Shown here: in pieces, positions 7,375 to 53,906 of the stretch | Position numbering within the stretch: position 1 is the first letter of the stretch | Layout: every line of letters starts with the position of its first letter | Origin: Tomocerus qinae | Lineage: Eukaryota; Arthropoda; Collembola; Entomobryomorpha; Tomoceridae | Length of the DNA stretch: 64,000 nt | Direction of reading: 5' to 3' | Assembly: GCA_020055645.1 (NCBI GenBank) | Contig: CM034546.1 | Span: 48,298,001-48,362,000 of the forward strand | The notes under the pieces: model-generated | What the model was told of the DNA's origin: nothing | Databases searched by the model: none | Seen by the model: the letters and a program-made list of their open reading frames with translations, nothing else | Position numbers and translations under genes: made by a program

Positions 7375-8917
7375 CTACTTCCCAGGCTTGGGGGCTGCAG
7401 TTGTCTTCTTGCGGGCGATGGCCTTCTTAGGGACTGCTTCCTCCTGCGGAGATGAACGAGAGGTTGACGGCTGTCTTGTCTCTTCAAGTCTGTCAGTGCT
7501 GGTGGCAGTGCTCATCCTGGCCTTCTTTTTTGGTTGGCCGTCCTCAGTACCCCCAGTATTCACACCCGCCTTCTTTGCCGCTTCACGCTCGTTCTGCAAA
7601 ACATAGAGCAATTAATTCATTAAGTACAAAGTGGTGTACTAGCTCAATTGAAAGCTGATTAAATGGCTCATAGTCATTCCCTGACAGGGGAAGTAGGTGA
7701 AAAAATTAAAAAATATAAATTTTTAATATTAAAACAAAAAGATACCCTTAAGCACGCGTGAGCTGCGTAGTTGTTGACAGCAATACCCTTCCTGCCACAG
7801 TGTGGGCAAGTTTTCCTGGGCTCTTCTTTCAAGCAGACCCGAATTACGTGTTTCCGGGCCCCACTCCTTGTGGAAAATGCTTTGCCGCAAATATTGCAGA
7901 TGAAGACGTTCTAGATGAACACAAATTATGAAAATAATTTTTAAATTGTGAAAATAATTTTTAAATTATGAAAATAATTTTTAAATTGTGAAAATAATTT
8001 TTAAATTGTGAAAATAATTTTTAAATTATGAAAATAATTTTTAAATTGTGAAAATAATTTTTAAATTGTGAAAATAATTTTTAAATTGTGAAAATAATTT
8101 TTAAATTGTGAAAATAATTTTTAAATGATGTAAATAATTTGTAAACAATGTAAATAATTTGTAAACAATTAGTAAATAATGTAAATAATTTGTAAACAAT
8201 TAGTAAATAATGTAAATAATTTGTAAATAGTATAATTAGATTTTAAATAGTGTAATTAGTTTTTAAATAATGTAATTAGATTTTAAATAGTGTAATTAGA
8301 TTTTAAATAGTGTAATTAGATTTTAAATAGTGTAATTAGATTTTAAATAGTGTAACTAGATTTTAAATAGTGTGATTAGATTTTAAATAGTATAATTAGA
8401 TTTTAAATAGTGTAATTAGATTTTAAATACTGTTAGATTTTAAATAGTATAATTAGATTTTAAATAGTGTAATTAGATTTTAAATAATATAATCAGATTT
8501 TAAATAGTGTAAATAAATTTATAAGTAATTTATTTAATTTTTAATTAGTGTAAATAATTTTTAAATTACCTCTGCAACTTGTTTTACTTCTTTTCGGCAG
8601 TCTTTACGTGGCCTACGTCGAGTGAAGTCCTTGGGATTAATATCCCTCCGTTGAAAGTGTGTCCATAGTTCATCTCGTCTTCTCTTCTCCTTTGTGAGGA
8701 ATAGATTGAGGATTGCTCCTTCTTTATTTTCTGCGTGATGCTAGAAATTAAATTATATTAAGAAATTAAAGTAATAATAAAATTAAAACTTAATTTTATT
8801 AATATTAAAACATCTTACCAAAAGCTCCAGTTCGTCGATGGTAATCAGCCCGCTTTCCAACCAGGCGTCCAAGGTTCTTCGAAGACTCCTAAAATCCATT
8901 TTTTGAAAATGGGACAT
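7375..8917 (-). CDS. Small zinc-finger protein with basic tail, 4 exons, about 216 aa
   Basis: Exons read in one frame, all phase 0: 8917-8819 (start MSHFQK; alternative starts at 8980 or 8899), 8740-8570, 7910-7746 and 7593-7375. Donors GTAAG, GTAATT and GTATCT and acceptors TTTCTAG, ATCTAG and TTTGCAG fit. Exon 2 is very basic (EKRRRDELW, RRRPRKDCRKE). Exon 3 holds a finger starting CNICGKAF and closing with H and C, then CPHCGRKG closing with HAC, so both are C2HC-like rather than classical C2H2. Exon 4 is a hydrophilic lysine/alanine/proline-rich tail (QPKKKAR, AIARKK), as in nuclear DNA-binding proteins. I do not recognise the family. The frame after the TAG at 7375-7377 stays open for 22 codons of the same composition before another TAG at 7306-7308. 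Intron 2 is a tandem array. Confidence 0.65.
7911..8569. repeat. Intron-filling tandem arrays, 20-bp period
   Basis: Almost the whole intron between exons 2 and 3 of the zinc-finger gene is tandem repeat. From about 7925 to 8125 the unit is 20 bp (aaaataatttttaaattgtg, with some atg variants). A diverged stretch with gtaaataatttgtaaacaat follows to about 8226. A second 20-bp unit (tagtgtaattagattttaaa) then runs to about 8510. Copies are near-identical, which suggests recent expansion. The splice sites at both ends remain intact. Confidence 0.9.
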
Positions 8918-9720: not shown

Positions 9721-11898
9721 CACTTTTTATTTGTTGATTCCTTTGTAATAATTTCAAAACTCCTTTCTGAATCAGTTTTAGACCCTACATCACTACATGT
9801 TTCGTCCTTTTGATTGTCCTCTGTCTCTTTTGCCGTCCGGATTTTATTCCCTTCACAGTGAAGCTTCAATTCTGAAATGTTATGAATTACTACTGTTAGT
9901 AAATAATACTCCTTTTTTCAAAATTTTGTTTGATGGTAGTCGATAATGAAATGAATAATTATAATTGTTAAACAAATACTTAGAAGTCAACCTTGCTTGC
10001 TAAAAAGCAAGAAATCGCTATAAAATTAATTTACAGTTTAAATCCAAAGGAGGATATGCAATAGGAAACTGGAGTAGAGGTCTTGTAGCCCTTAAAATTT
10101 CACCCAGACAACATGTATATGTTCCTATACCTAAAATGAGACCCTGAGGCTGTAGGATTTTTTTAAGAAAATATAATACATGGCCGGAGTAGGGAAAAAT
10201 TTTTTTTCAAAAATCGATTTGGAGAGGTTGCCCGGTAATTTTGACACTTTCAAGCATATCCCCAGAGAGAGGGAAGGTTCCAGCAACTTTTATGAAAAAA
10301 TTGCGTGTGTTATTTTTTTTTGATTTTTAAATCAAGTTTGAAAACCACCAAAAACCAACGATTTTTGGCATCATAAATTAGCCGACGGCCGTTATGAGAC
10401 ATACCCATTAACATTACTTATTAGCCTACAATTATAATGCAGGTCGATTTAATATTATCTACATCAAACTTAAACATTAGTGCGCTACCACCGCGCGCGC
10501 TGACACAAATCATTCGTTTTGAAGGAATTGGGTAATTTTCATCACCCAGATGTAAAAATTGACGCTGATAACGGATCTGTAATCAGCGTCATTTTTACAT
10601 CTGAGCGATGAAAATTATCAAATTCCTTCGAAACTAATGATTTGTGTCAGCGCGCGCTGTGGTAGCGGGCTAATGTTAATTTTCATGTAACTGTAATTAT
10701 TTTAGTTGAAAACAGCGTCACTATTTACATCTAGGTACCAAAAATCGCCCAATTTGGTTAAAATTGATAATTTGTGTCACCGCGCGCGGTGGCTGCGGGC
10801 TGATCATATTTATTGGGGTATCCATACGCCCTAACAGGCATATGGATACCCTAATTATTCTAAAAGTTTAATGTAGATAGTATTAAATCGACCTGCATTA
10901 TAATTGTAGGCTAATAAGTAATGTTAATGGGTATGTCTCATAACGGCCGTCGGCTAAGTTATGAGGTCAAAAATCGTCGGTTTTTGGTGGTTTTCAAACT
11001 TGATTTAAAAATCAAAAAAAATATGACACACGCAATTTTTTCATAAAAGTTGCTGGAACCTTCCCTCTCTCTGGGGATATGCTTAAAAGTGTCAAAATTA
11101 CCGGGCAACACCTCCAAATCGATTTTTGAAAAAAAAAATTTCCCTACTCCGGCCATGTATTATATTTTCTTTAAAAAATCCTACAGCCTCAGGGTCTTAT
11201 TTTAGGTATAGGAACATATACATGTTGTCTGGGCGAAATTTTAAGGGCTACAAAATGGCCATCTCAGTTTCTTATTGCATATCCTCCTTTAATTTAATGA
11301 CAATACTTTGAAGTTTTAACACTGGAGTCTTTTTAAACAATGGTGTAATTTCTTGTCCATCGTTTGACAAATCCAAATTGTGAGTATTGCCATTCTCCTC
11401 CTTATCATCACTTTCTTTGGACACCCATCCTTGTAAATAGTTTTCGCATTTGAACTCTTCAATTGTAACTTCATCAGTAATATCACTGTTGACCACACAA
11501 GGGATAAGCAATGGATCTGTTTCTAAATCGTCGAATATTGGACTCGGCACATTCCAAGAATCAACAATAGGGAGGTCAGACACGTCAAATTCAATAATCT
11601 TTTTTCCACTGTCATTTTCTTTCGTTTTACGCCGGCGGTGGAGAATTTCCAAAGCGAAAGTGAAAACTGATTCAGAGATGTTCTTTTGAATTAATTTTAG
11701 TTGGTCTGATAAATCAACTAGTTGCATTCCTGATTCAAAACATTGTCTACAAATCGCCAAACATTTGTTTTTGTCTTCAAATTGCGTTACTATAGTAGAG
11801 TGTAAAAGTTTACGATACACTTTGTACAGATGTGGAGTGCTCGCGAATTGTTCATCACATCCACTGAAACAAAGCAGGCAAGTTTTCATTGACGACAT
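9721..11898 (-). CDS. ZAD-domain protein, copy 1, two exons, zinc-finger exon not found
   Basis: Exon 1 is 11898-11307 and begins with MSSMKTCLLC. Its paired CLLC and CRQC cysteines and spacing match the zinc-finger-associated domain (ZAD), which in arthropods dimerises C2H2 transcription factors. An acidic linker follows. Donor AAA|GTATTG. Exon 2 is 9871-9721 (acceptor TTTCAG), phase 1 in and phase 2 out, the same 151 bp as in copy 2. Both exons are open, with no stop or frameshift. The donor at 9720 (GTAATT) implies a third exon, but no C2H2 exon like that of copy 2 lies downstream, so the gene may be truncated, may use a distant exon, or may encode a finger-less ZAD protein. Without splicing, exon 1 reads on to a stop inside the palindromic element in its intron. 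A conserved repeat module lies about 820 bp upstream. Confidence 0.6.
10046..11290. mobile_element. 1.25-kb palindromic (long inverted repeat) element in the ZAD copy 1 intron
   Basis: The left arm (about 10046-10475) and the right arm (about 10863-11290) are inverted copies of about 430 bp, close to identical, starting aaaggaggatatgcaata. The centre holds a second hairpin: an arm with ccgcgcgcgctgacacaaat near 10490 pairs with tttgtgtcagcgcgcgct near 10640, with tgacgctgat and atcagcgtca around the loop. A third partial copy of the arm (ttgtgtcaccgcgcgcggtgg) lies at about 10770-10795. No coding sequence is seen. The flanks do not show a clean target-site duplication. Comparison with the shorter intron of ZAD copy 2 shows it is an insertion. 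Confidence 0.85.
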
Positions 11899-13372
11899 TT
11901 TGCTGAGAAGGCCGTAAATGAAATTGATGTTTTCAAATCTGTAGTGGTTACGGGTGAGTATTCAAGAAAACTTTGAACTTTCAGTTGCCGTTCCTCTTCA
12001 ATCTAGAACTATAAACCACAATGCATAAAGGAAATTTTAGAAACATTACATTGTTGGCATGGCAGTTAGGTAAATTGTAGAGATGTGGTTAATTGTCTAC
12101 GGTTAACATTTTCCCGCAATGATGTCAAGAACAAAAAAAAAGCACCAATTATTAAATCAGCAATCAATACTGAAACTACTTTGATTTACATGTACCTGCA
12201 ACCTAACTCTGATCAACCATCTAAGCACGAACTTCAATACCAGATATTACCTCACCAATAATACCCGATTAAGCGGGTAATAGTGGTAATACACACTTAT
12301 TAAAAATTAATAAAATCATAATAATTAAAATAAAATTCAGGGTGATTTCCAAAATGACATTAACCAAGACTCTTAACTTTTTCTGATGGTGACATTTTCG
12401 GTGATGATTTGTAAAATTTTAAATTACAAAACAGTTTTGGGCAAAATTAAGTTTCTTTTACCTTAATTACTTCGACCACTTTTACTTTTTTTTTTACAAA
12501 TTCTTATATCTACCCACAGTTCACTCACATTGTCCACATCACATCTACTATTTATTAGTTAATACTTTAATATTCGCGGGCAAGATGCTAATTCTCATTC
12601 CCAAGGTGCCCCCCTCAGAGCCCACTTCATTGCATTGCATTGAATGCGGAATGAAATTTAGCATTTAGCAACAGACCAGAGCAGAAACAGAAATGCCCCA
12701 CGCGGTCAATTGATTTTAGTGGAAGCTTTGGCAAAAGTACAACATCCAGACTCCTTAGTGAGGACTTACGGAACCTTACTTTCAAAATAGCTACAAATAC
12801 ATAAAGAAGAATAAATCTTGGGATAAAAAGAGAGTTAGTAGGGCAGAATAATACCCAAAAGTCTCTTAATTTTAACTTTTATTGCACTCATTGCACTGTG
12901 TTTGTAAGAACATTTTCCTCGCAATTTCATATACGATGTACGAAAAACAAATTATTAATTTTTTTATAACTGATGTGTATAAAACTAATTCGTGCTTTGG
13001 TGTTGAAACCATCCCAGAAATCCAATAAAAGGATTTTAATTTTCGATTGATTTTTTTTAATTCATTATGAGCTGGGAAGTTTTGTAGCCGCGATATGCTT
13101 TTTTCTGTGTACCCCACCCATACCGAAGCGGTATGATTTTAGTCGGACCTTGGATAATATCTGGTACAGTGCTTTTTAGAAGAGGTACGTACTTCTGAGC
13201 TGAGTATTAATTATATTAAATTTCATTTCAGAACCTTTTAATAGAATCGCAGAGAAATAATTCCAATTCCAGTATAGATGTTTATGGAATATTTTTGTGG
13301 ATCTTATAACGTTTCCTCGGCAAGTACTATAATTTTAATTGTTCAAAGTTTGTAGAATCAATTTAAACTAAT
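11899..13372. other. Intergenic upstream of ZAD copy 1
   Basis: No gene found. It contains a copy of the dispersed ggaagcttt module at 12720-12795 and AT-rich spacer. The 81-codon open frame at 12872-13117 (minus) has no supporting features. Confidence 0.4.
12720..12795 (+). repeat. Dispersed 'ggaagcttt...ggacttacgg' module, copy A
   Basis: The sequence runs tggaagcttt, then agtacaacatcc, then ggacttacggaacc. It is closest to copy B (28775), which lies at a comparable distance upstream of the other ZAD gene, so A and B were probably duplicated together with the gene. Copies C, D and E elsewhere in the window share the same order of blocks. Confidence 0.7.
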
Positions 13373-22605: not shown

Positions 22606-23809
22606 AAATCTGATACAATACGAAGATACGTGCCTGAATAAGCCCTACAGAACTTAGTGATCTAATTTTTCAGGTGCCACTTCCACTGTTCGAAGTCTGA
22701 TGCCCCAAGTTGAGGTTACAGTTATCAATGTTCTGCTTTATTTTCTATACCTATTTTCCTGCTGTTACACATGAATGTATCAATTTTTACTACAGTTGCC
22801 AATTTAAAACAAAAATCATATTTTACTGATTGCGTTTGTTTATCATAAAGCACACCATGTTAAAATTGCTCGTAGCTAAACAATCGTACTATCGAGGCAG
22901 CCTTATGCATTCCAACATTTCAAATTGTTGTAATAACGTTTTTAAAGCCAGAAATAACATTTAAAATATTGAAAATGTAACCGTTAAAACAAATATATAT
23001 TACCACTTTTCGGTTGGTGCTCTTTTTGTAATACTTTAAGAGCAGCTCTCTGAATCAGTTTTAGACCATTCAGTGTTGTAGTTGCAGATTTCCTTCAGTT
23101 GCTGTTCTTCTTTTGCTACCACGATTGTATTTCCATCACAATGAAACTGCAGTCCTGTAAATCATCAATTATAAGCATTATTATTCATTTATTAATATTT
23201 TGCTTCATAATACTTGATATAATATGTTAAATAGAATATTTTTTATCAAATAATTTGTATTCAACTGCGCTAAAAAGCAAGACATTTCTATTTACAATTT
23301 GAGTAAAATGAATACTTAATTAATAACATTTACTTTTAACTTGCACCACTGGGTTCGTTGTATTTTGCTGCCCATTTTGCTTATTTTTTGCCACATCCAA
23401 ATTATTAATATTAATATTGTCATTTTCCTTATCATCACATTCTTCGGGCACCCATCCTTGTAAATAGTTTTCGCATTTGAACTCTTCAATTGTAACTTCA
23501 TCAGTAATATCACTGTTGACCACACAAGGGATGAGCAAAGGATCTGTCTCTAAATCGTCGAATATTGGACTCGGCACATTCCAAGAATCAGCAATAGGGA
23601 GGTCAGATACGTCAAATTCAATCTTTTTTCCACAAATTTCGTCATTTTCTTTCGTTTTACGCCGGCGGTGGAGAATTTCCAAAGAGAAAGTGAAAACTGA
23701 TTCGGAATTCTTTTGAATTAATTTTAGTTGGTCTGATAAATCCACTAGTTGCATTCCTGATTCAAAACATTGTCCACAAATCGCCAAACATTTGTTTTTG
23801 TCTTCAAAT

Positions 23810-24043
23810 CATACATAGGCAGCTCTGTCGTACTCTTAAGAAGAGATGTAGGGTTTGGAGCGGATCGCGCCATTTTTATCAGTAGAGGAGTACCATGGTG
23901 CTAATGGACAGCTCACATTGTGGTGGGCAGTCAGGGTTGTTGGTGGTGAGCACCACGGTACTCCGCTACTGATAAAAATGGCGCGATCCGCTCCAAACCC
24001 TACATCACATCTCTTAAGAGTACGACAGAGCTGCCTATGTATG
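23810..24043. mobile_element. 234-bp MITE with about 95-bp terminal inverted repeats and 8-bp target duplication
   Basis: The ends catacataggcagctctgtc and gacagagctgcctatgtatg pair, and the arms run about 95 bp each (including tggagcggatcgcgccattt). The flanks are cttcaaat at 23802-23809 and 24044-24051, a perfect 8-bp duplication. The size and 8-bp target fit hAT- or P-type non-autonomous elements. It sits at the left end of the foldback element, using the same target bases. Confidence 0.9.
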
Positions 24044-24065
24044 CTTCAAATTGGGTCAGGGTAGG

Positions 24066-24256
24066 TACACGAAACCCGAAAGGTATATACCCGAACCCGA
24101 AAGCGTGTATACCCGAAACCCGAAAGGGTATATACCCGAACCCGAAAGCGTATATACCCGAACCCGAAAGGGCATATACCCGAACCCGAAAGCGTATATA
24201 CCCGAACCCGAAAGGGTATATACCCGAACCCGAAAGCGTATATACCCGAACCCGAA
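24066..24256 (+). repeat. Foldback outer array, left arm (22-bp units)
   Basis: About eight to nine copies of a 22-bp unit with core cccgaacccgaaag followed by a gtatata-type spacer, alternating agcgtatata and agggtatata. Three frames stay open through it, giving false proteins rich in YIPEPE-like repeats. Confidence 0.9.
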
Positions 24257-24290
24257 TGACTTATTTTCGGAATTTTTTCCCCCAAAACAC

Positions 24291-25493
24291 ATTGGCGCGG
24301 GCGTTTGAACCAGGCACATCTGGGTTTTTACCGTGTCCGTCGATTGAAGAAAATGCCTGGAAATTCCTATATTTAGGATTTTCCAGGCATTTTCAAAAGT
24401 GTAAAACTGTAAGGCTGTACCTCAGGTAAGTGGTCCAACTTGCGGTTTTACTTTATCGTATTTAATTTACTATTAATTGTGCAGTGAAGTAAACTAAATT
24501 TTTCGTTTTATTAGGTTCATGGTCATTGCTGGGAACTTCGGCACTGCGCCATCTCGGGGGCACTCAGAGTAATGTGCTACTTGTTGACAGTGACCACAAG
24601 ATGTCGCAGGGCCGCCTTTCTGGAATGAAACTTAACCAACATTTTTCTCAACTTGTTCATGTATCAACATCATGAACTCGAGACTGTGTTGTGTGTGTGA
24701 TGTTGGGCATGAGACGATGATGCATTGCGCCACTGCACTCTGCCCATAATCCATACACACAACCTCATGCACGGTAAAAATTTTATTCGTTTTTAAATTA
24801 CGCGAGTGGATTTTAATGGGGGTGTCGGGTGGTGCTACTCGGGATTGTGGGCGTGGTCATGCGGGGGGGGGGGGACTGCCGCGGATTGGGGAGTCTGTAC
24901 CGGGGGTCTCACATTTGCTCTTTCCCCGGGGTGCCTTACCATACCGCCGTGTATAGCCGCCGCCTGGCCTCTCTCTTGGTTTCGGGTGGGGCTATTTGAT
25001 GGCTCCCATTGAAATCCTAGGACACATGTCAACCGTGTCCAGGAATCAGTACTCAGAAATGAGGACTGCATGAAAGAGATGGGGAGCCGCAGAGCCAACC
25101 TGTCTCAACGTACTCCATTTACGTAAGTAGGGATCATATGAGTAACCACTTGCCAAAGCAGCAGGTATACTGCCGACGTGGCAGCAAGAACTGCCAGAAC
25201 CGGAGAATAGGGGGCCAAAAGGAGCCCTAGAATCCTAATCCCCCTGGACCGCAAGATGAGGTAGGTGGGGCGGGGTGCCCAATTTCGTTCTTTTCTTATT
25301 TTATTTTGTGGTGGCAGGTGCTGCTGCTAAAACGCCATATCTAAGCACTGGTATGGTGTGGCAGAGCCTGCCGGGAATCAAAGTTGTCGCCAGGGGAGTT
25401 GGCAATGGGCCCGTACAGGCGGCCTGCGCCCTTGTCGTCAGTTCTACTCAATAGGCTGATGACAACCCCTTATAATACATACATACATACATA
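24291..25493 (+). mobile_element. 1.2-kb non-LTR retroposon with (atac)n tail, 12-bp target duplication
   Basis: The element starts attggcgcgggcg and ends in a catacatacatac tail. It is flanked by cccccaaaacac at 24279-24290 and 25494-25505, a perfect 12-bp duplication of a single site in the foldback arm; the right arm (about 27750-27770) keeps the empty site. A tail of short repeats plus a longer target duplication is typical of LINE- or SINE-type target-primed insertion. It is clearly GC-richer than the surroundings, with a G run at about 24863-24873. It has no reverse transcriptase, so it is 5'-truncated or non-autonomous. A hairpin lies near its 5' end (about 24351-24394, atgcctggaaa arms). 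Confidence 0.85.
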
Positions 25494-25800
25494 CCCCCAA
25501 AACACCCGAAACCTGAAAGTTCCGCAGGCAACACTAGTATGTAGTCGAAGTAAGTTGTTATTAAAATCGACTACCCCATTTAGTGGTACTTTGTCCTAAT
25601 TAATCAATATTACACTTAATTAAACCAACAGTGTTACAACTTGTCCAAATAAGAAGTATATAGTCAAAACAAGCCGTAATTGATAGAAATCTGCATTGTT
25701 TAGTCAATACAAGCATTAATCAATCAAAATAATTCATTTGTGTGAAACAAGTGTTGATTAGGGTAAACATACTGCAATTATTAAAAGCTGGCTTTAAATA

Positions 25801-26230
25801 ATGATAGTCATCTTTGAACAATGTTTCATCTTTGAATAATGTTATTCATCTTTGAATAATGTTATTCATCTTTGAATAATGTTATTCATCTTTGAATAAT
25901 GTTATTCATCTTTGAATAATGTTATTCATCTTTGAATAATGTTATTCATCTTTGAATAATGTTATTCATCTTTGAAAAATGTTATTCATCTTTGAATAAT
26001 GTTATTCATCTTTGAATAATGTTATTCATCTTTGAAAAATGTTATTCATCTTTGAATAATGTTATTCATCTTTGAATAATGTTATTCATCTTTGAATAAT
26101 GTTATTCATCTTTGAATAATGTTATTCATCTTTGAATAATGTTATTCATCTTTGAATAATGTTATTCATCTTTGAATAATGTTATTCATTTTCGAATAAT
26201 GTGATTCATCTTTGAATAATGTTAATGGTT
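25801..26230 (+). repeat. Foldback inner array, left arm (20-bp units)
   Basis: About 20 copies of gttattcatctttgaataat. The first and last few copies are degenerate and the middle ones almost identical. Confidence 0.95.
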
Positions 26231-26321
26231 TTGGAATAATGATAATCTGCTTTAAATGATCATAATCAGCTCTGAATAATAGTAATCAGCTTTAAATAAT
26301 GGTAATCGGCTTTAAATTTCT

Positions 26322-27500
26322 AGATGAATAACATTATTCAAAGATGAATAACATGATTCAAAGATGAATAACATTATTCAAAGATGAATAACATTATTCA
26401 AAGATGAATAACATTATTCAAAGATGAATAACATTATTCAAAGATGAATAACATTATTCAAAGATGAATAACATGATTCAAAGATGAATAACATGATTCA
26501 AAGATGAATAACATTATTCAAAGATGAATAACATTATTCAAAGATGAATAACATTATTCAAAGATGAATAACATTATTCAAAGATGAATAACATTATTCA
26601 AAGATGAATAACATTATTCAAAGATGAATAACATTATTCAAAGATGAATAACATTATTCAAAGATGAATAACATTATTCAAAGATGAATAACATTATTCA
26701 AAGATGAATAACATTATTCAAAGATGAATAACATTATTCAAAGATGAATAACATTATTCAAAGATGAATAACATTATTCAAAGATGAATAACATTATTCA
26801 AAGATGAATAACATTATTCAAAGATGAATAACATTATTCAAAGATGAATAACATTATTCAAAGATGAATAACATTATTCAAAGATGAATAACATTATTCA
26901 AAGATGAATAACATTATTCAAAGATGAATAACATTATTCAAAGATGAATAACATTATTCAAAGATGAATAACATTATTCAAAGATGAATAACATTATTCA
27001 AAGATGAATAACATTATTCAAAGATGAATAACATTTTTCAAAGATGAATAACATTATTCAAAGATGAATAACATTATTCAAAGATGAATAACATTTTTCA
27101 AAGATGAATAACATTATTCAAAGATGAATAACATTTTTCAAAGATGAATAACATTATTCAAAGATGAATAACATTATTCAAAGATGAATAACATTATTCA
27201 AAGATGAATAACATTATTCAAAGATGAATAACATTATTCAAAGATGAATAACATTATTCAAAGATGAATAACATTATTCAAAGATGAATAACATTATTCA
27301 AAGATGAATAACATTATTCAAAGATGAATAACATTTTTCAAAGATGAATAACATTTTTCAAAGATGAATAACATTATTCAAAGATGAATAACATTTTTCA
27401 AAGATGAATAACATTATTCAAAGATGAAACATTATTCAAAGATGAATATCATTATTCAAAGATGAATAACATTATTCAAAGATGAATAACATTATTTAAA
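26322..27500 (-). repeat. Foldback inner array, right arm (20-bp units, inverted)
   Basis: About 58 copies of aagatgaataacattattca, the reverse complement of the left unit. Most are identical; scattered variants have acatttttca or acatgattca. A spacer of about 90 bp with diverged units separates the two arrays. Confidence 0.95.
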
Positions 27501-28094
27501 GCTAACTTTTAATAATTGCAGTATGTTTACCCTAATCAACACTTGTATTGACTAAACAATGCAGATTTCTATCAATTACGGCTTGTTTTGACTATATACT
27601 TCTTATTTGGACAAGTTGTAACAATGTTGGTTTAATTAAGTGTAATATTGATTAATTAGGACAAAGTACCACTAAATGGGGTGGTCGATTTTAATAACAA
27701 CACACTTCGACCACATACTAGTGTTGCCAGCGGAACTTTCAGGTTTCGGGTGTTTTTGGGGGAAAAAATTTCCGAAAATAAGTCATTCAGGTTCGGCTAT
27801 ATACGCTTTCGGGTTCGGGTATATGCCCTTTCGGGTTCGGGTATATGCCCTTTCGGGTTCGGGTATATACGCTTTCGGGTTCGGGTATATACCCTTTCGG
27901 GTTTCGGGTATACACGCTTTCGGGTTCGGGTATATACCTTTCGGGTTTCGTGTACCTACCCTGACCCCTTCAAATTGTGTTACTATAGTAGAGTGTAAAA
28001 GTTTACGACACACTTTGTACAAATTTGGAGTACTGGCGTTTTGTTGATCACACCTACTGAAACAAAGCAGGCAAGTTTTCATTGACGACAACAT

Positions 28095-35097: not shown

Positions 35098-37715
35098 ATG
35101 GCACTAAATTGTGTTTACATTCTACTAATTATTGGATTATCCTCAGCCTGGGAAATAAAAGATATAGCAGACTTTGAAAAAGAATGCTACATTAATGTGA
35201 TATTCAATCAATCTTATGTGGAAAAAACTCAAGATACAGTCCTAAATATGCAGCTTCAAAAAATGGATATCCCATACTCAATTACAAAACCACAATATAA
35301 TTATACAGATGATTTGATTATATATCGCAAATTTAGCATCTTGAAATTTCAGAAGCATGTAGTGTGTATAACTGACATATTATTTGACGTTGGTGCAAAT
35401 CGTCTGCCTAATATTACAACGTAACAAGCCATTTCATCATGACTGCTACAAAGTAACAAACCATTTTATCATGGCTGAGACAAAGTAACAAACCATTTTA
35501 TCATGGCTGCGACAATGTAACAAACCTAACTCCTGATACATTGGTTTGTTACATTGTCGCGGTCATGATAAAATGGTTTGTTACTTTGTCTCAGCCATGA
35601 TAAAATGGTTTGTTACTTTGTAGCAGTCATGATGAAATGGCTTGTTACGTTGTAATATTAGGCAGACGAAATGCTTTAACGGATTTATATTATTTTGAAT
35701 ATATCAGTGACTATTTTACAACTCGAGATACGTTAGTGGTTAGATTTAAACAATCGGTTTCTTCACAATGGTTGTACAACGCAGAACATTCTTCTGTTTA
35801 CATGCTTGCCCAAAAAGAAGTTGTGGATTTAGTGAAATTAAATATTAACAGATTATTTTTTGATACGCCAAGAAAAAGTTATAAAAAGTCAATTATAAAT
35901 GAGCTAATTATCCATAGACTTTGGTTTATCTTGTCTTGGTCAGGGGCAGATGAAAATTTATTTTTTTTGTGCCCAGTTAATAGCGCATGGGAGAGCAAAG
36001 CAAATTATATATTTGCTTATAATATGGTGCCTTTGTGTTGGGGAATAACTTGTTATGGGAAAAAACTGCGGCAAACGGCGATAGAAAACTTTATTACAAG
36101 TAGCAAAGTTGCGAAAACAGTAAAGGTTTCCACACACGATTTGACACATAATGATAATGACTATTGTGGGCCACCACTCCGTGATGATTATTTCACATAT
36201 TTTAGTCCAAAATATGGAATTTCTGTTATAATTAATTCAATTATATTTCATAATTTCCCAAATTCCACAGTAGGAAAGTGCTTACATTTAAAAAATGTTT
36301 TTCCAGTAGTACCTCTTTTTTTCCAATCGCAAGATTTCGTACATTGGCTTCGTGGACATCCTTATGTCTTTATGATTCCCACTACAGAAGACTCTTTCAA
36401 TTTTATTTCTTGTGTCGTTTTAGAAGACGAAAGTCTTTCTTTCTATGGCTACATTCGACCTTATCAATTTCATGCCTACATTGGCATAATCATTTCTGTT
36501 TTTGCTGCTATCATCTTTCTCCGTGGGGTATCATTCTACAAAGGTGATAATAGCGACCCGTTTTTCCTTATCTTCTATGCGTATATTTTGGAAATCAGTT
36601 ATTCTCTATCATCTCAAGCTGATAAAAAAGCGTGGATCAAATTAGTTATCGGCCCGTTCCTACTTATGTTCATTGTATTAACAAATGCCTACAAAGGAAT
36701 CGTCACTACAGACTTAGTTGAGCCACGTCCAGTCAAGAGAATTGAATCCATGGAACATTTGGCAAATTTATCTCAAATTTCTACTTTTGGTCAATTGGTT
36801 AATACAAATGAGTTTGAACCTTTCAATTTATCGTACTTTTTTCAACATAGCCTTTTAAAATGGTACTACGATAAACTCAACAAAAAAGTGAAACTTAAAT
36901 ATTTTCATGAGCAAAACAAAAGTATAATACTAGAAGCCTTACAGATGCAAAATTTCAAAAATATAACTTCAAAGAATCTGCTTGATCATAAATTAAACGA
37001 TTTATTTAAAGTGATAGAGCTATATTGGGATTTATACGGTAACAATCCTCCTCCTAACATTCTTCACCAGGAAATTGTAATCAAAATTGCCAATTCACTT
37101 AAATTCTATCGTGGATTCCCGGACATTACTCCTTATGAGTGGATTTCACAATGTAATTACTCTGCGATGATTCTTCAAAAGTCTACTATGCATAGATTTC
37201 TTAATGACTCACATTGGAATCCTGAACTTGGAGGAGTTAAACCTCTCAAAACTTTATATCTCGGAGTGGAAGAACATCCTATTATTCCAACATCATTTTA
37301 TATGATTCTCGACACTTCTGACATACCTTTACTCACACCGCTTGTAAGACTAAATTTCTTTGTTGTTAGTCAATCTGGGATCTTAGATTTCTGGTTTGAG
37401 AACTACAAATCATATAATTATACAAGATGTCGTACATGCTGGCTCAGAAATCCACCTCGGCCTCTAACCTTTGACAATTCCAATATCGCTACAATATTTG
37501 CAATTTCTGGATGCATTTTACTAGCATCTTTAATAGCTTTCTTTGCGGAAATTACGGTGTCATTAAAAAGTAAAATATGGAAATTTCTTATTGAGATTTG
37601 GAAAGTTGCAAGAGTCCCCAAAAATAGAATCATCACTGGAATATATTATTCAATTTACAACAGCATATTTTGTACTCATTCTTCTACTCCCATTATTATA
37701 ATTCGTAATCGTTAA
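35098..37715 (+). pseudogene. Divergent ionotropic receptor (IR-like), copy 1, broken by a hairpin MITE
   Basis: The protein is a close paralogue of copy 4 (54910-57276), with the same signal peptide start (MALNCVYILL). A 268-bp palindromic MITE at 35401-35668 interrupts it after about codon 101, adding 272 bp with its 4-bp target duplication, which shifts frame and brings a stop. From ALTDLYYF (about 35669) to the stop at 37715 the frame is intact, so the break looks recent. The C-terminal part keeps all three membrane segments (around 36480-36540, 36640-36710 and 37480-37560) and the CRTCWLRNPPRPL motif before the last one. Unless the MITE is spliced out (no GT-AG at its ends), no full receptor can be made. 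Confidence 0.88.
35401..35668. mobile_element. 268-bp hairpin MITE in receptor copy 1, 4-bp target duplication
   Basis: The ends are cgtctgcctaatattacaac and the matching inverse, and the arms of about 125 bp pair with only a few mismatches around an 18-bp loop (ctaactcctgatacattg). Each arm contains about three direct repeats of 32 bp with core gtaacaaaccattttatcat. The flanks are aaat at 35397-35400 and 35669-35672; the empty site (gcaaatgcttt) is seen in copy 4. Confidence 0.93.
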
Positions 37716-40126: not shown

Positions 40127-41165
40127 TAGGGAATCCAAAACCGGACCCAAATTTTAAAACCGGTTTTCGGTTTTTTCGGTTTTTGAACTTTTAAAACCGG
40201 GTTTTCACCGGTTTTAAAAACCCAAAATTTGTTTTTAAAAATTCAATGCTAATACTACCAAATTAATGTGTTTGCAGATAAAGACAGACAGAACACAATT
40301 TCATTAAGTGGAATTTTAACTTTTACTAACAATTTAATTTTATTTTATTTTTTAAATAAGATATAAATCTCAAAAGTAGTTTTTGGTATTATCGTTTAAA
40401 GGGTCCTGATAGTACTAAATGCATTGCAATTGGAGGGGACCCTTCTACAAAACCAATTCTATCGAGTCATTCTCATGAGAAATAATCAAAATGTTTTAAA
40501 TTTATGTACTAAAATTATTGGCCACTCCAAAAACGCTCTGAGAGTTTTAACTTAAATCTGTGTAGTAAGTTTTTTCCAACTCATATTCAGTTTTCGATAA
40601 TTCTCGAAGAGAAATAATGCAATCATAGAATACAGCGTCTTTGAAGCAAATAAATTTTTCTCATATTTTTATGCTTTCTAAATTTTTGAAAATTAGAGAA
40701 AATTGATTTAAAATGATTCAATCTAATTAAGAATTTTATTTCAAAAAATATATCGAGGATAGAAAATATTTACTGCCATTTTTGTATTGCGTTCTAAAGT
40801 AAAAAAAACTCTAAACGGAACTGGTATTTGCCCTTCTATTACTTTACTGTTATTGTAAATACTAGTTTATTGTGTTTTACTTTACTGAACTCTACATAAT
40901 TGCACGTATCCAAACATTAAGGATTTTCATGTTATTATTAATAAACGTTTTACTATTTTATATAATTTATGCGACTTTATAATTGTATCTCAATTTCTGA
41001 TTTTCGAATTTTCAGGCTTTATTGTTATTTTAACTGCATATCAGATATAGTTAAATATCTTCTATCAACACCGGTTTTCAGAAAATGAAAACCGGTTTCC
41101 GGTTTTGAAAAGTTCGGTTTTTCACCGGTTTTAAAACCGGTGTAAAACCGGCTTTGGATTCCCTA
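40127..41165. mobile_element. 1.04-kb hAT-like non-autonomous element, 8-bp target duplication
   Basis: Ends tagggaatcc and ggattcccta, flanked by gtcatgtc at 40119-40126 and 41166-41173. Both ends hold clustered aaaaccggttttc-type motifs (about 80-100 bp each). The AT-rich interior has no open frame. Confidence 0.92.
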
Positions 41166-43571: not shown

Positions 43572-46462
43572 ATGCACTCTTAAAAATGACAACAGTCATT
43601 CCTGTCATTTTTAACATTATTCGCAGTTATTTATCCTGTTTTTTTGGACTTACATTTTTTCCCGTTAAAATGACATGAATCAAGACTGTCAATTTTCTAA
43701 CTTTAATTAATGTCAGCTTTTAACGATTGATCACGTATCCATAACATGAACTCATGTGAAAAAATAACGGGACAAAATGTCATCAAAGCAAAAAATTGTA
43801 CCGTGACAGAGGTTTGAACCACATACGCTCACTTGTGTATCCATCCATTTTAAACCCGTATAATGCCACCCTGCTACCAATGCTTTATATGATTAGGGTA
43901 GACTTTTGACGATACGTATTCTGTTCATAGCTTCTAAAATGACTACATTATTATTTCTTGTTATTTTAACAGTCAATTTTGTCAATATTTTGACATCGAT
44001 AAAGTTGTCATTTTAAAATCGTTTAACAATATTTTAATGTCATTTTTACATTTGTTAATGTTACAAATGACGTGATGAAGATAACGTTAGCGTAATTTGA
44101 CGTTTATTTTTAAGAGTGTGGTATCATTTTGTGTTTATATATTGTATTAATTGTTGGATTATCTTCAGGGTGGGAAATAAAAAATGTAGCAGATTTTGCA
44201 AAGGAATGCTACATTAATGTGTCATTCAATCAATCTGATGTCGACAAAGCTCAAGAAACAGTCCTGAATATGCAGCTTCAAAAAATGGATGTTCCATACT
44301 CAATTACAAAACCACAACTTAATAAACGTCATGACTACTATAAGTATATTAATCGCAAATTTATTAGCTTGAAATTGCAGAACCGTGTGGTGTGTATAAC
44401 TAACATAGTGTTTGACGTTAGTGCGAATGCTTTAACGGATTTCAATTATTTTGATTATATCAACAACTATTTTTCAATTAGAGAGAATTTAACTGATAAA
44501 CGGTCGTCGGGTTTAAAATGGTTCAACTACGCAGAACATTCTTCTGTCTACATGCTTGTCCAAAACGAAGTTTTACATTTAGTGAAATCAAATGTTAACA
44601 AATTATCTTTCGTTACACCAGGAAAACGTATTTCACAATCCATTTTAAATAGACTAATTGGCAACAGACCTTGGTTTATCTTGTCTTTGTCAGGGGCAGA
44701 TGAAGATTTGTTTTTTTTGTGCCCAGTCAACATTAAAGATACAAACCCTTACTTTGGTAGAGTATTTTCTTATAGCGTGGTACCAATGTGTTCAGCAATA
44801 AATTGCTATATGAAGCAATTGCGGCAAATGGCGATAGAAAACTTTATTACAAGTAGCAAAGTTGCAAAAACTGTATTGCCTTCAATCCTTGATGACAATA
44901 ACCAGCAGCATCGTGATTATTGTGGGTCACCATTGCGTGATGCTTATTTCAGAGACACATATAATAATCTAAAATACGGCCTTCCAGTTGTAATAACTTC
45001 GATAATATTTCAAAATTTTTCAAATTCCACAATAGGGTATTCTTACCACAAAAACAAATGCAAATACTTGCAAGATAATACAATAATAGCAATTAATTTC
45101 CAACAGCAATATCTCGACTTCCATTTGAATGTAAATCCTTATAGCTTTATGATTTCAACTACAGAAGATTCTTACAATTTTATTTCTTGTGTTATTTTAG
45201 AAGACGAAAGTCTTTCCTTCTATGGCTACATTCGTCCTTATCAATTTCATGCTTGGATTGGCATAATCATTTCTGTTATTATCGTTATCACATTTCTCCA
45301 TGGGGTGACATTCTATAAAGAAGATAATCGCGACCCGTTCTACCTTATCTGCTATGCATATCTCTTGGAAGTCAGTTATTCTCTATCACCACAAGCTAAT
45401 AAAAAGTGGTGGATCAAGTTACTTATCGGCCCGTTTATAATTATGTTCGTTGTGTTAACAAATGCCTACAAAGGAATCGTCACTACAGATTTTGTTCAGC
45501 CACGTCCAGTCAAGCGAATTGAATCCATGGAGCATTTGGTAAACTTATCTCAAGTTTCTACTTTTGGTGCATTGGTTGACACAAATGAGTTTGAACCTTT
45601 CGATTTAGGAAACTTGGCACAATATTACCTATTAGTGCAGTACTACGCCAAACACAACAAAACAAATGAAAAATTTTATTTTCAGGAGCACAACAAAAGT
45701 ACAGTTCTAGAAGTCTTGCAAATTCAGAATTTGGAATATCAAAAGTCAAATAGTATATCCGAGTCTTTGTTACCTTATCTATATAAAGTAGTAAAAGCAT
45801 ATGTGACTTTGTACGGTGCCTTTGTTCCTTTTAACATTTTGCACACGGAAATTATAATTAAAATTGCCAATTCACTTCAATTCCCTCCTGGATTTCCGTA
45901 CATTACTCCTTACGAGTGGATATCACAATGCAACAACTCTGCAATGATTCTTCAAAAGTCTACTATGCATCGATTTCTTAATGATTCACATTGGAATCCT
46001 GAGAGTGGCGGAGTTCAACCTCTCAAAACTTTATATCATGGAATGGAAGAAGACTCTATTATTCCAGTATCATTTTATATGTTAATCGATACTGATGATA
46101 TACCTCTACTCACTCCTCGTATAAGACAAAAATTATTTGTTGTGAGTCATTCTGGTCTATTTGATATCTGGCTTGAGAACTTCAAATCATATAATTATAC
46201 AAGATGTCGTACATGCTGGCTCAGAAATCCACCTCGGCCTTTAACCTTTGACAATTCCAATATCGCTACAATATTCGCAATTGCTGCGTCCATTTTACTA
46301 GCATCTTTAATAGCTTTCCTTTCAGAATTTATAGTGTCATTTAAAACTGACGTTTGGAAAGTTGCAAAAATTGCCAAAAATAGAATCATCAACGGAATAC
46401 ATTTAATTTATTTGTACATCATTTTCTTTACTCGTTCTTCTACACTCATCGTTGAATTTTGA
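43572..46462 (+). pseudogene. Divergent ionotropic receptor (IR-like), copy 2, start codon cut off by a MITE
   Basis: The open frame from about 44129 to 46462 covers the entire receptor after the first few codons (LIVGLSSGWEIKNV onward) without a stop, about 777 codons. The ATG that aligns with the start of copy 4 (43572-43574) is separated from it by a 544-bp MITE, and reading from it gives a stop after three codons. The first in-frame ATG lies in NMQLQKMD, past the signal peptide. Membrane segments occur near 45250-45310, 45410-45480 and 46260-46330, with the conserved CRTCWLRNPPRPL just before the last. The preserved body suggests either recent inactivation or rescue by a new upstream exon. 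Confidence 0.8.
43575..44118. mobile_element. 544-bp MITE at the start codon of receptor copy 2
   Basis: The ends cactcttaaaaatgac and gtttatttttaagagtg are inverted repeats. It lies directly after the ATG at 43572-43574, followed by tggtatc. The apparent duplication is only tg. On its minus strand at about 43890-43810 a tRNA-like pair of motifs (tagcagggtgg and ggttcaaacc) resembles RNA polymerase III A and B boxes. Confidence 0.78.
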
Positions 46463-51691: not shown

Positions 51692-52039
51692 CTCGAGTAT
51701 AGTGGTGATTAACGGACCCTTGTAGGACTTTTATAGGACGGACTTCTTATCGGACGGACTCTTAACGGACGCGGACCCTTAACGGACGGACTCTTATCGG
51801 ACGCGGACTCTTATCGGACCGACACCTAACGGACGGACCTTAACGATACAGTCCGCTATGAGTCCGCCAGACTCAACCTCATGCACAGTGGCAGAAAACA
51901 TCAAACATGCGGCCAATACTAAAGCTTGCACCGAAATTACAAACTGTGGGGGATTTCAGTGCTATTGTTGCCGACCAACTAGGTCAGTGGAATTTATTAT
52001 GTTTAAGATATTAACCGACTGTTTTTAAATATTTTCGAA

Positions 52040-52520
52040 AAGTTTCGAATGGTTTCGAATATTTTCGAATGGTTTCGAATAATTTCGAATGGTTTCGAAT
52101 ATTTTCGAATGGTTTCGAATAATTTCGAATGGTTTCGAATATTTTCGAATGGTTTCGAATATTTTCGAATGGTTTCGAATATTTTCGAATGGTTTCGAAT
52201 ATTTTCGAATGGTTTCGAATATTTTCGAATGGTTTCGAATATTTTCGAATGGTTTCGAATATTTTCGAATGGTTTCGAATATTTTCGTATCTTTTCGAAT
52301 GGTTTCGAATATTTTCGAATGGTTTCGAATATTTTCGAATGGTTTCGAATATTTTCGAATGGTTTCGAATATTTTCGATCGGTTTCGAATATTTTCGATC
52401 GGTTTCGAATATTTTCGATCGGTTTCGAATATTTTTGATCGGTTTCGAATATTTTCGATCGGTTTCGAATATTTTCGATCGGTTTCGAATATTTTCGTAT
52501 CTTTTCGAACGGTTTCGAGT
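52040..52520 (+). repeat. Foldback 2 inner array, left arm (20-bp units of two 10-bp halves)
   Basis: The unit ggtttcgaat plus attttcgaat shows an internal 10-bp half-repeat around ttcgaat. A variant with ggtttcgaat attttcgatc is clustered at 52370-52490. Confidence 0.95.
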
Positions 52521-52739
52521 ATTTTCGAATAGATTCGAATTTCTTCGAAAAATTTCGAAACTATTTGAAAATATTCGTAACTATTCAATAGAAACTAGTC
52601 GAAAGTATTCAAAACTAGTCGAAAATATTCTAAACTGTTTGATAAGATTCACATATATTCGTCACTATTCAAAAATATTTGAAACAATTCGAAAAGATTG
52701 GAATTTATTTGAAAATGTTCGAAAATATACGAAAATATT

Positions 52740-53565
52740 CGAAACCATTTCGAAAATATTCGAAACCATTCGTAAATATTCGAAACCATTCGTAAATATT
52801 CGAAACCATTCGTAAATATTCGAAACCATTCGAAAATATTCGAAACCATTCGAAAATATTCGAAACCATTCGAAAATATTCTAAACCATTCGAAAATATT
52901 CGAAACCATTCGAAAATATTCGAAACCATTCGAAAATATTCGAAACCATTCGAAAATATTCGAAACCATTCGAAAATATTCGAAACCGATCGAAAATATT
53001 CGAAACCATTCGAAAATATTCAAAACCATTCGAAAATATTCGAAACCGATCAAAAATATTCGAAACCGATCGAAAATATTCGAAACCGATCGAAAATATT
53101 CGAAACCATTCGAAAATATTCGAAACCATTCGAAAATATTCGAAACCATTCGAAAATATTCGAAACCATTCGAAAATATTCGAAACCATTCGAAAATATT
53201 CGAAACCATTCGAAAATATTCGAAACCATTCGAAAATATTCGAAAATATTCGAAACCATTCGAAAATATTCGAAACCATTCGAAAATATTCGAAACCATT
53301 CGAAAATATTCGAAACCATTCGAAAATATTCGAAACCATTCGAAAATATTCGAAACCATTCGAAAATATTCGAAACCATTCGAAAATATTCGAAACCATT
53401 CGAAAATATTCGAAACCATTCGAAAAAATTCGAAACCATTCGAAAAGATACGAAAATATTCGAAACCATTCGAAAATATTCGAAACCATTCGAAAATATT
53501 CGAAACCATTCGAAAATATTCGAAACCATTCGAAAATATTCGAAACCATTCGAAAATTTTCGAAA
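52740..53565 (-). repeat. Foldback 2 inner array, right arm (inverted)
   Basis: Units of cgaaaatattcgaaaccatt, the reverse complement of the left array, about 40 copies. Variants with accgat cluster at about 52980-53100, and mirror-image variants occur in the left arm. Confidence 0.95.
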
Positions 53566-53906
53566 ATATTTAAAAACAGTCGGTTAATATCTTAAACATA
53601 ATAAATTCCACCGACCTAGTTGGTCGGCAACAATAGCACTGAAATCCCCCACAGATTGTAATTTCGGTGCAAGCTTTAGTATTGGCCGCATGTTTGATGT
53701 TTTCTGCCACTGTGCATGAGGTTGAGTCTGGCGGACTCATAGCGGACTGTATCGTTAAGGTCCGTCCGTTTGGTGTCGGTCCGATAAGAGTCCGCGTCCG
53801 ATAAGAGTCCGTCCGTTAAGGGTCCGCGTCCGTTAAGAGTCCGTCCGATAAGAAGTCCGTCCTATAAAAGTCCTACAATGGTCCGTTAATCACCACTACT
53901 CGAGTA

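What the first reader, a model, noticed from the sequence alone, without database searches (positions are those of the whole stretch)
24053..27967. Foldback element with inverted 20-bp arrays of unequal length and a 9-bp target duplication
The three-zone arms (22-bp array, unique block, 20-bp array) and 9-bp duplication recall Drosophila FB elements but with unrelated sequence. The inner arrays differ almost threefold (about 20 versus about 58 copies), so they expand or shrink independently. The empty site is preserved in the ZAD paralogue, which proves insertion.
Basis: partly seen in the sequence, partly recalled or inferred. Interest (0 to 1): 0.75.

Follow-up and report, generated by a model that had tools for sequence, protein, structure and literature searches.

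The report
Foldback transposon with unequal repeat arms
This is a real, non-coding jumping element with repeat-filled mirror-image ends that landed in a gene copy; it has sister copies elsewhere in the same animal genome, and its inner repeats grow and shrink freely, a new family of an already known kind.

Summary
At 24053-27967 lies an inverted-repeat element flanked by a 9-bp duplication, CTTCAAATT. A paralogue at 11363-11914 shows the empty site. Of 20 further loci read from the 334-Mb assembly, 17 are complete copies with the same ends. Of these 18 copies, 10 have exact 9-bp duplications, 6 have 10-bp and 2 are imperfect. Outer arrays of period 21-22 bp occur in 36 of 36 arms. Inner 20-bp arrays run from 0 to 131 units and differ between arms in all 14 copies that have them. 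Three array-less copies at different targets share one centre, so inner arrays are not needed for movement. No transposase frame was seen in any copy. In the same genome 5 of 20 examined Mutator-like (MULE) loci have inverted arrays around the transposase domain, all of period 21-22; two others have firm 9-bp duplications. Best reading: a non-autonomous foldback family, most likely moved by a MULE transposase, with passenger inner arrays. New member of a known kind.

The parts
24044..24052 (.). left copy of 9-bp target duplication CTTCAAATT (its first 8 bases are also the right duplication of the hairpin element)
24053..24256 (+). outer zone of left arm: terminal motif GGGTCAGGGTAGGTACACG plus 22-bp array
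24257..24290 (+). start of left unique block, interrupted by the nested insertion; 24279-24290 is the first copy of the insertion's 12-bp duplication
24291..25493 (+). nested 1203-bp (CATA)n-tailed insertion, by inference a truncated retroelement; not part of the foldback; no match to it in the 17 other copies
25494..25791 (+). second copy of the 12-bp duplication (25494-25505) and rest of left unique block
25792..26321 (+). left inner array, 20-bp units, 26 by segmentation; inner end (26210-26321) made of degenerate units
26322..27501 (-). right inner array, 20-bp units, 59, abrupt inner edge
27502..27785 (-). right unique block; 270 identical and 8 mismatched columns against the left block, one 38-bp gap
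27786..27967 (-). outer zone of right arm, 22-bp array plus terminal motif, one unit shorter than left
27968..27976 (.). right copy of 9-bp target duplication
23810..24043 (.). separate 234-bp hairpin element at the same target, 8-bp duplication CTTCAAAT at 23802-23809 and 24044-24051
23320..28094 (-). interrupted gene copy (coding parts 23320-23801 and 27968-28094); frame open on both sides of the insertion
11272..11898 (-). uninterrupted paralogue ORF, the empty site at 11775-11783

Best explanation
It is one of at least 18 complete copies of a non-autonomous foldback DNA transposon family. SHOWN: the same termini in the 18 copies read (at most 2 edits in 24 bases); 9-10-bp target duplications in 16; an empty site for this insertion; no transposase frame seen; outer arrays of period 21-22 in every arm read; inner 20-bp arrays of 0-131 units. 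INFERRED: a Mutator-like transposase supplied by another element binds the terminal motif and the 22-bp repeats, cuts the element out and pastes it in with a 9-10-bp stagger. The inner arrays are passengers that lengthen and shorten by unequal exchange or slippage, each arm on its own. This copy landed in a coding exon of a duplicated, probably zinc-finger, gene.
For: Empty site. Copies, boundaries and duplications: 10 of 18 exact 9 bp, 6 of 18 exact 10 bp, of which L025 and L026 are one insertion duplicated. Genome-wide terminus count: 42 places at up to 1 mismatch, against 1 for the reversed-pattern control; 36 of the 42 are the two ends of the 18 copies. Outer arrays in 36 of 36 arms; inner arrays 0-131. 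L009, L010 and L015 have different flanks and duplications but one common array-less centre. L014, L018 and L019: corresponding arms show 0 differences in 151 sites in each of six comparisons, yet arrays of 15.4, 11.4, 11.4 and 14.4, 16.4, 22.4 units. MULE link: 59 MULE-domain places; of 20 fetched, 5 have paired inverted arrays around the domain, periods 22, 22, 22, 22 and 21; two others, L039 and L040, have 9-bp duplications at their ends, with 0 of 40 control ranges matching in each.
Against: No transposase-bearing copy with these ends was found, so the MULE link rests on duplication length and array period, and no MULE read here shows both firmly: the 8- and 9-bp matches found for L033 and L035 turned up in 14 of 40 and 7 of 40 control ranges, so they may be chance, and none was found for L038. 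Two of the five array pairs are weak (unit similarity 0.77 in L030, 0.71 in L037, threshold 0.7, no shuffled control). Unit sequences of this family and of L033, L035 and L037 are unrelated (p 0.34-0.97; L030 not compared). Periods 21 and 22 are also the commonest in all TRF rows of the 20 MULE loci (26 of 128, these arrays included). 15 of the 20 loci showed no paired arrays. L020 and L022 lack an exact duplication. Partner arms are each other's nearest relative for only 5 of 36 arms, so arm homogenisation, a working idea of mine, is not supported.
Confidence: 0.75

Rival explanations
1. A foldback of another cut-and-paste superfamily (P/Galileo-type or hAT-type) that evolved the same look.
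For: Foldback architecture occurs in several superfamilies (PMC3573991 passages; PMC3688188 passages). A passage of PMC7642927 calls the Drosophila FB elements P element-related. Another three-zone foldback in this window, 51700-53898, has an 8-bp duplication.
Against: Duplications are 9-10 bp in 16 of 18 copies; hAT and P elements make 8 bp or shorter as a rule (recalled). A passage of PMC4079207 says most foldback elements seem to be Mutator. Array period matches MULE loci of this genome.
Confidence: 0.17
2. Not a mobile element: a local palindrome and satellite made by rearrangement.
For: Arrays and hairpins are common in this window.
Against: Empty site, 18 dispersed copies with fixed ends, duplications.
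Confidence: 0.01
3. The insertion is spliced out and the host gene copy still works, the element acting as a new intron.
For: Frame open on both sides; aligned reading frames keep pace with the paralogue; dN 0.059 and dS 0.183 over the first 180 aligned codons.
Against: Those rates average over the whole time since duplication and fit a recent insertion into a gene that was working until then; no transcript data. The ORF read from the gene start stops inside the element, at 27783.
Confidence: 0.1

Closest known systems
Drosophila FB (Foldback) elements (PMC7642927, passages)
   Same: Long end sequences (467-479 bp there; 524 and 466 bp here before the inner arrays, nested insert left out); inverted blocks of short tandem repeats unequal between arms (2 versus 7 or 8 blocks there); middle region with degenerate repeat vestiges; 9-bp duplication.
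   Different: Repeat units 27-31 bp there, 22 and 20 bp here. Sequence relation not tested.
Tm1, a Mutator/Foldback family of root-knot nematodes (PMC3169594, passages)
   Same: 8-10-bp, mostly 9-bp, duplications (45 of 53 complete elements there); arms with variable numbers of short tandem repeats that differ between the ends; non-autonomous copies; empty paralogous site.
   Different: One array zone of about 14 bp; asymmetric 7-bp end motifs; a member encoding a Phantom-type transposase is known, none found here.
Muta1 and other Aedes MULEs (PMC5225508, passages)
   Same: 8-9-bp duplications, terminal motif followed by subterminal tandem repeats; 10 of 12 long-TIR families there have them.
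   Different: Repeat 12 bp in Muta1 (9-15 bp in the families); no inner array mentioned in the passages; active transposase.
Galileo (PMC3573991 and PMC3688188, passages) and Tetris (PMC4079207, passages)
   Same: Tandem repeats in the arms vary independently in the two arms (Galileo); no transposase in Tetris copies; Tetris duplications 8-10 bp.
   Different: Units about 210 bp (Galileo F) and 220 bp (Tetris); Galileo is a P-superfamily element.

Membership tests
Foldback elements (structural class) | long terminal inverted repeats built of tandem arrays, flanked by a target duplication | tested here: met
Foldback elements (structural class) | multiple dispersed copies with the same ends | tested here: met
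Drosophila FB family | 9-bp target duplication | tested here: met
   9 bp here and in 9 of the 17 other copies; 10 bp in 6, imperfect in 2
Drosophila FB family | sequence homology to FB or NOF | not tested
Mutator-like (MULE) superfamily | 8-11-bp target duplications (range recalled; 8-9 bp in PMC5225508) | tested here: met
   16 of 18 copies exact 9 or 10 bp
Mutator-like (MULE) superfamily | an autonomous MULE sharing the termini | tested here: inconclusive
   none among 18 copies or 20 of 59 MULE places; 39 MULE places and 4 one-mismatch termini not read
Mutator-like (MULE) superfamily | subterminal arrays of the kind seen in MULEs of the same genome | tested here: inconclusive
   period agrees in 5 of 20 MULE loci, unit sequence does not

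The most novel reading that the evidence does not exclude
The inner 20-bp unit is held nearly constant across the family. Subfamilies whose unique blocks are only 76-81% identical to the window copy (L014, L018, L019, L025, L026) have arrays with the same 20-bp consensus; four other copies (L011 right arm, L012, L017, L023) differ by one base. Either the copies exchange array sequence as one dispersed satellite, or the unit is kept by binding a host protein. A mobile element would then be carrying and renewing a satellite that it does not need for its own movement.
Probability: 0.25. Interest if true: 0.55.

Novelty: new member of a known kind. Interest (0 to 1): 0.38.

Why it matters
Within one assembly it gives a natural series of one foldback family, from no inner array to 131 units, with fixed ends. 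Such a series can separate what the outer and inner repeats do; PMC3688188 says that whether the repeats of Foldback and Phantom elements act as binding sites was untested when it was written (passage). Here the outer array is kept in every arm read and the inner array is dispensable.

Tried and rejected
Inner units as palindromes: not more self-complementary than shuffles (p 0.16 for this element); dropped.

Shared order of variant units between the two inner arrays of this element: not above chance (p 1.0). For the second foldback at 51.7 kb weakly so (p 0.029).

Arm homogenisation by gene conversion: partner arm nearest in only 5 of 36 arms; dropped.

Terminus and inner-array patterns in viral contigs and the inner-array pattern in bacterial/archaeal genomes: no exact match, as expected for an animal transposon.

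Six-frame reading of the nested 1.2-kb insert gave no frame over 89 aa. Loci L027 and L028 (one end only) were looked through for a transposase frame; none was recognised by eye, and L027 shows frames resembling a retrotransposon reverse transcriptase (not scanned against families).

Literature: the listings showed no report of this family; the organism is unknown to me, so this is weak. Passages only were read of PMC3169594, PMC4079207, PMC3573991, PMC5225508, PMC8504770, PMC3688188 and PMC7642927.

Full report
Observation. The element runs from 24053 to 27967. Read without gaps, its two ends are perfect inverted repeats for 140 bp; the gapped alignment of the outer zones has 183 identical and 3 mismatched columns and one 22-bp gap. 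CTTCAAATT abuts both ends. Among 2,000,000 random boundary pairs in the window none shared 9 abutting bases and 163 shared 8. TRF finds outer arrays of period 22 and inner arrays of period 20 in inverse orientation. The inner arrays have 26 and 59 units; 63 of the 85 units are the same 20-mer. The left inner array ends in degenerate units at its inner edge and the right does not, so the centre is not symmetric.

The left arm is broken by a 1203-bp insertion (24291-25493) with a 12-bp duplication and a (CATA)n tail; no match to it was found in the 17 other complete copies. A 234-bp hairpin element (23810-24043) stands in the same target with an 8-bp duplication, so CTTCAAAT is present before the hairpin, between the two elements and after the foldback. 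The order of the two insertions cannot be told from the sequence.

Empty site. The paralogue at 11363-11914 runs through the target with one CTTCAAATT. The alignment of the flanks with it has 509 identical columns, 37 mismatches and 7 gaps. The target is coding: the paralogue ORF (11272-11898, minus strand) reads across it, and in the filled copy the frame is open on both sides. Over the first 180 aligned codons dN is 0.059 and dS 0.183.

The family. The genome search placed the window in a 334-Mb assembly of 115 contigs and gave 48 matches to the outer end (40 of 74 candidates scored, so a lower bound). I fetched 20 loci; the weak matches at C3:41791385-41791791 were not read. Seventeen loci are complete, three (L013, L027, L028) lack an intact second end. 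With the window copy, 18 of 18 share the boundaries, with up to 2 edits in the 24-base terminus. Duplications are exactly 9 bp in 10, 10 bp in 6 and imperfect in 2 (L020, L022). L025 and L026 have reverse-complementary flanks and are one insertion duplicated with its surroundings, so the independent insertions number 17. A pattern search for the terminus found 42 places with up to 1 mismatch (34 exact): 36 are the ends of the 18 copies, one each belongs to L013 and L027, and four were not examined; the reversed-pattern control gave 1.

What varies. Inner arrays (left:right): 0:0 in L009, L010, L015 and L020; 2.5:7.6 L011; 4.3:0 L012; 15.4:14.4 L014; 6.2:2.2 L016; 11.1:0 L017; 11.4:16.4 L018; 22.4:11.4 L019; 0:19 L021; 32.9:6.9 L022; 0:19.8 L023; 130.8:26.9 L024; 30.2:0 L025; 0:28.2 L026; 25.6:59.1 window. 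The duplicated pair L025 and L026 differs by two units. Corresponding arms of L014, L018 and L019, identical at 151 of 151 compared sites, carry arrays of different length. The outer array is present in 36 of 36 arms, down to 2.4 units in one arm of L020. L009, L010 and L015 have one common centre without inner arrays and three different target duplications, so that form has itself moved.

Who moves it. In the 17 other copies the two longest stop-to-stop frames listed for each are readings of the repeat arms, 174 aa at most; in the window copy with the insert left out the longest is 109 aa. These frames were not scanned against families, and an intron-split gene could be missed. The genome holds 59 places that match the MULE domain. 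Of the 20 that I fetched, none has the foldback's ends. Five have inverted arrays on both sides of the domain, with periods 22, 22, 22, 22 and 21 (L030, L033, L035, L038, L037); L033 and L038 share one unit, and the pairs of L030 and L037 are only just above the similarity threshold. L039 and L040, without such array pairs, have 9-bp duplications at their ends, with 0 of 40 control ranges matching in each case; those found for L033 and L035 are not better than controls. Pfam confirms the MULE domain in seven of seven reading frames tried, and FLYWCH in L034. The unit sequences compared (L033, L035, L037) are unrelated to those of the foldback. I therefore call it MULE-type by likely mode of action, not by proven membership.

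Known context. From passages read: Drosophila FB has unequal inverted repeat blocks, degenerate vestiges in the middle and a 9-bp duplication (PMC7642927). Tm1, Muta1, Tetris and Galileo show repeat-built arms that vary in length. Galileo's transposase domain binds its tandem repeats, while those of Foldback and Phantom were untested (PMC3688188). The present family adds a two-array arm in which the outer array is constant and the inner one optional.

Noticed in passing
window 51700-53898: A second three-zone foldback of unrelated sequence: outer 15/32-bp arrays, unique block, inner 20-bp arrays of unequal length (26 and 48 units by segmentation), 8-bp duplication CTCGAGTA, arms 336 identical and 4 mismatched columns. 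Rare variant units occur in the same order in both arms (p 0.029)..
   Followed up: partly
window 35401-35668: A short foldback of 32-bp repeats with duplication AAAT inside a receptor-like gene; the gene copies at 44423 and 55207 show the empty site. A relative lies in L029 at 1545-1722..
   Followed up: partly
window 23802-24052: Two unrelated elements, 8-bp and 9-bp duplication, inserted at the same target bases..
   Followed up: partly
window 40127-41165: Element with 13-bp perfect ends TAGGGAATCC... and 8-bp duplication GTCATGTC, hAT-like by its ends (recalled motif)..
   Followed up: no
window 10046-11290: 1.2-kb inverted-repeat element with nested hairpins just downstream of the paralogue ORF; no clear duplication..
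   Followed up: no
window 7923-8567: Array of period 20 (32 copies), AT-rich, not inverted..
   Followed up: no
L033, L035, L038: MULEs whose two ends may differ in the outermost bases (GGTTGGG at one end, GGTATAC or GGTATTC at the other), recalling the asymmetric 7-bp motifs of nematode Tm1; uncertain, because the duplications that set these boundaries are no better than controls..
   Followed up: no
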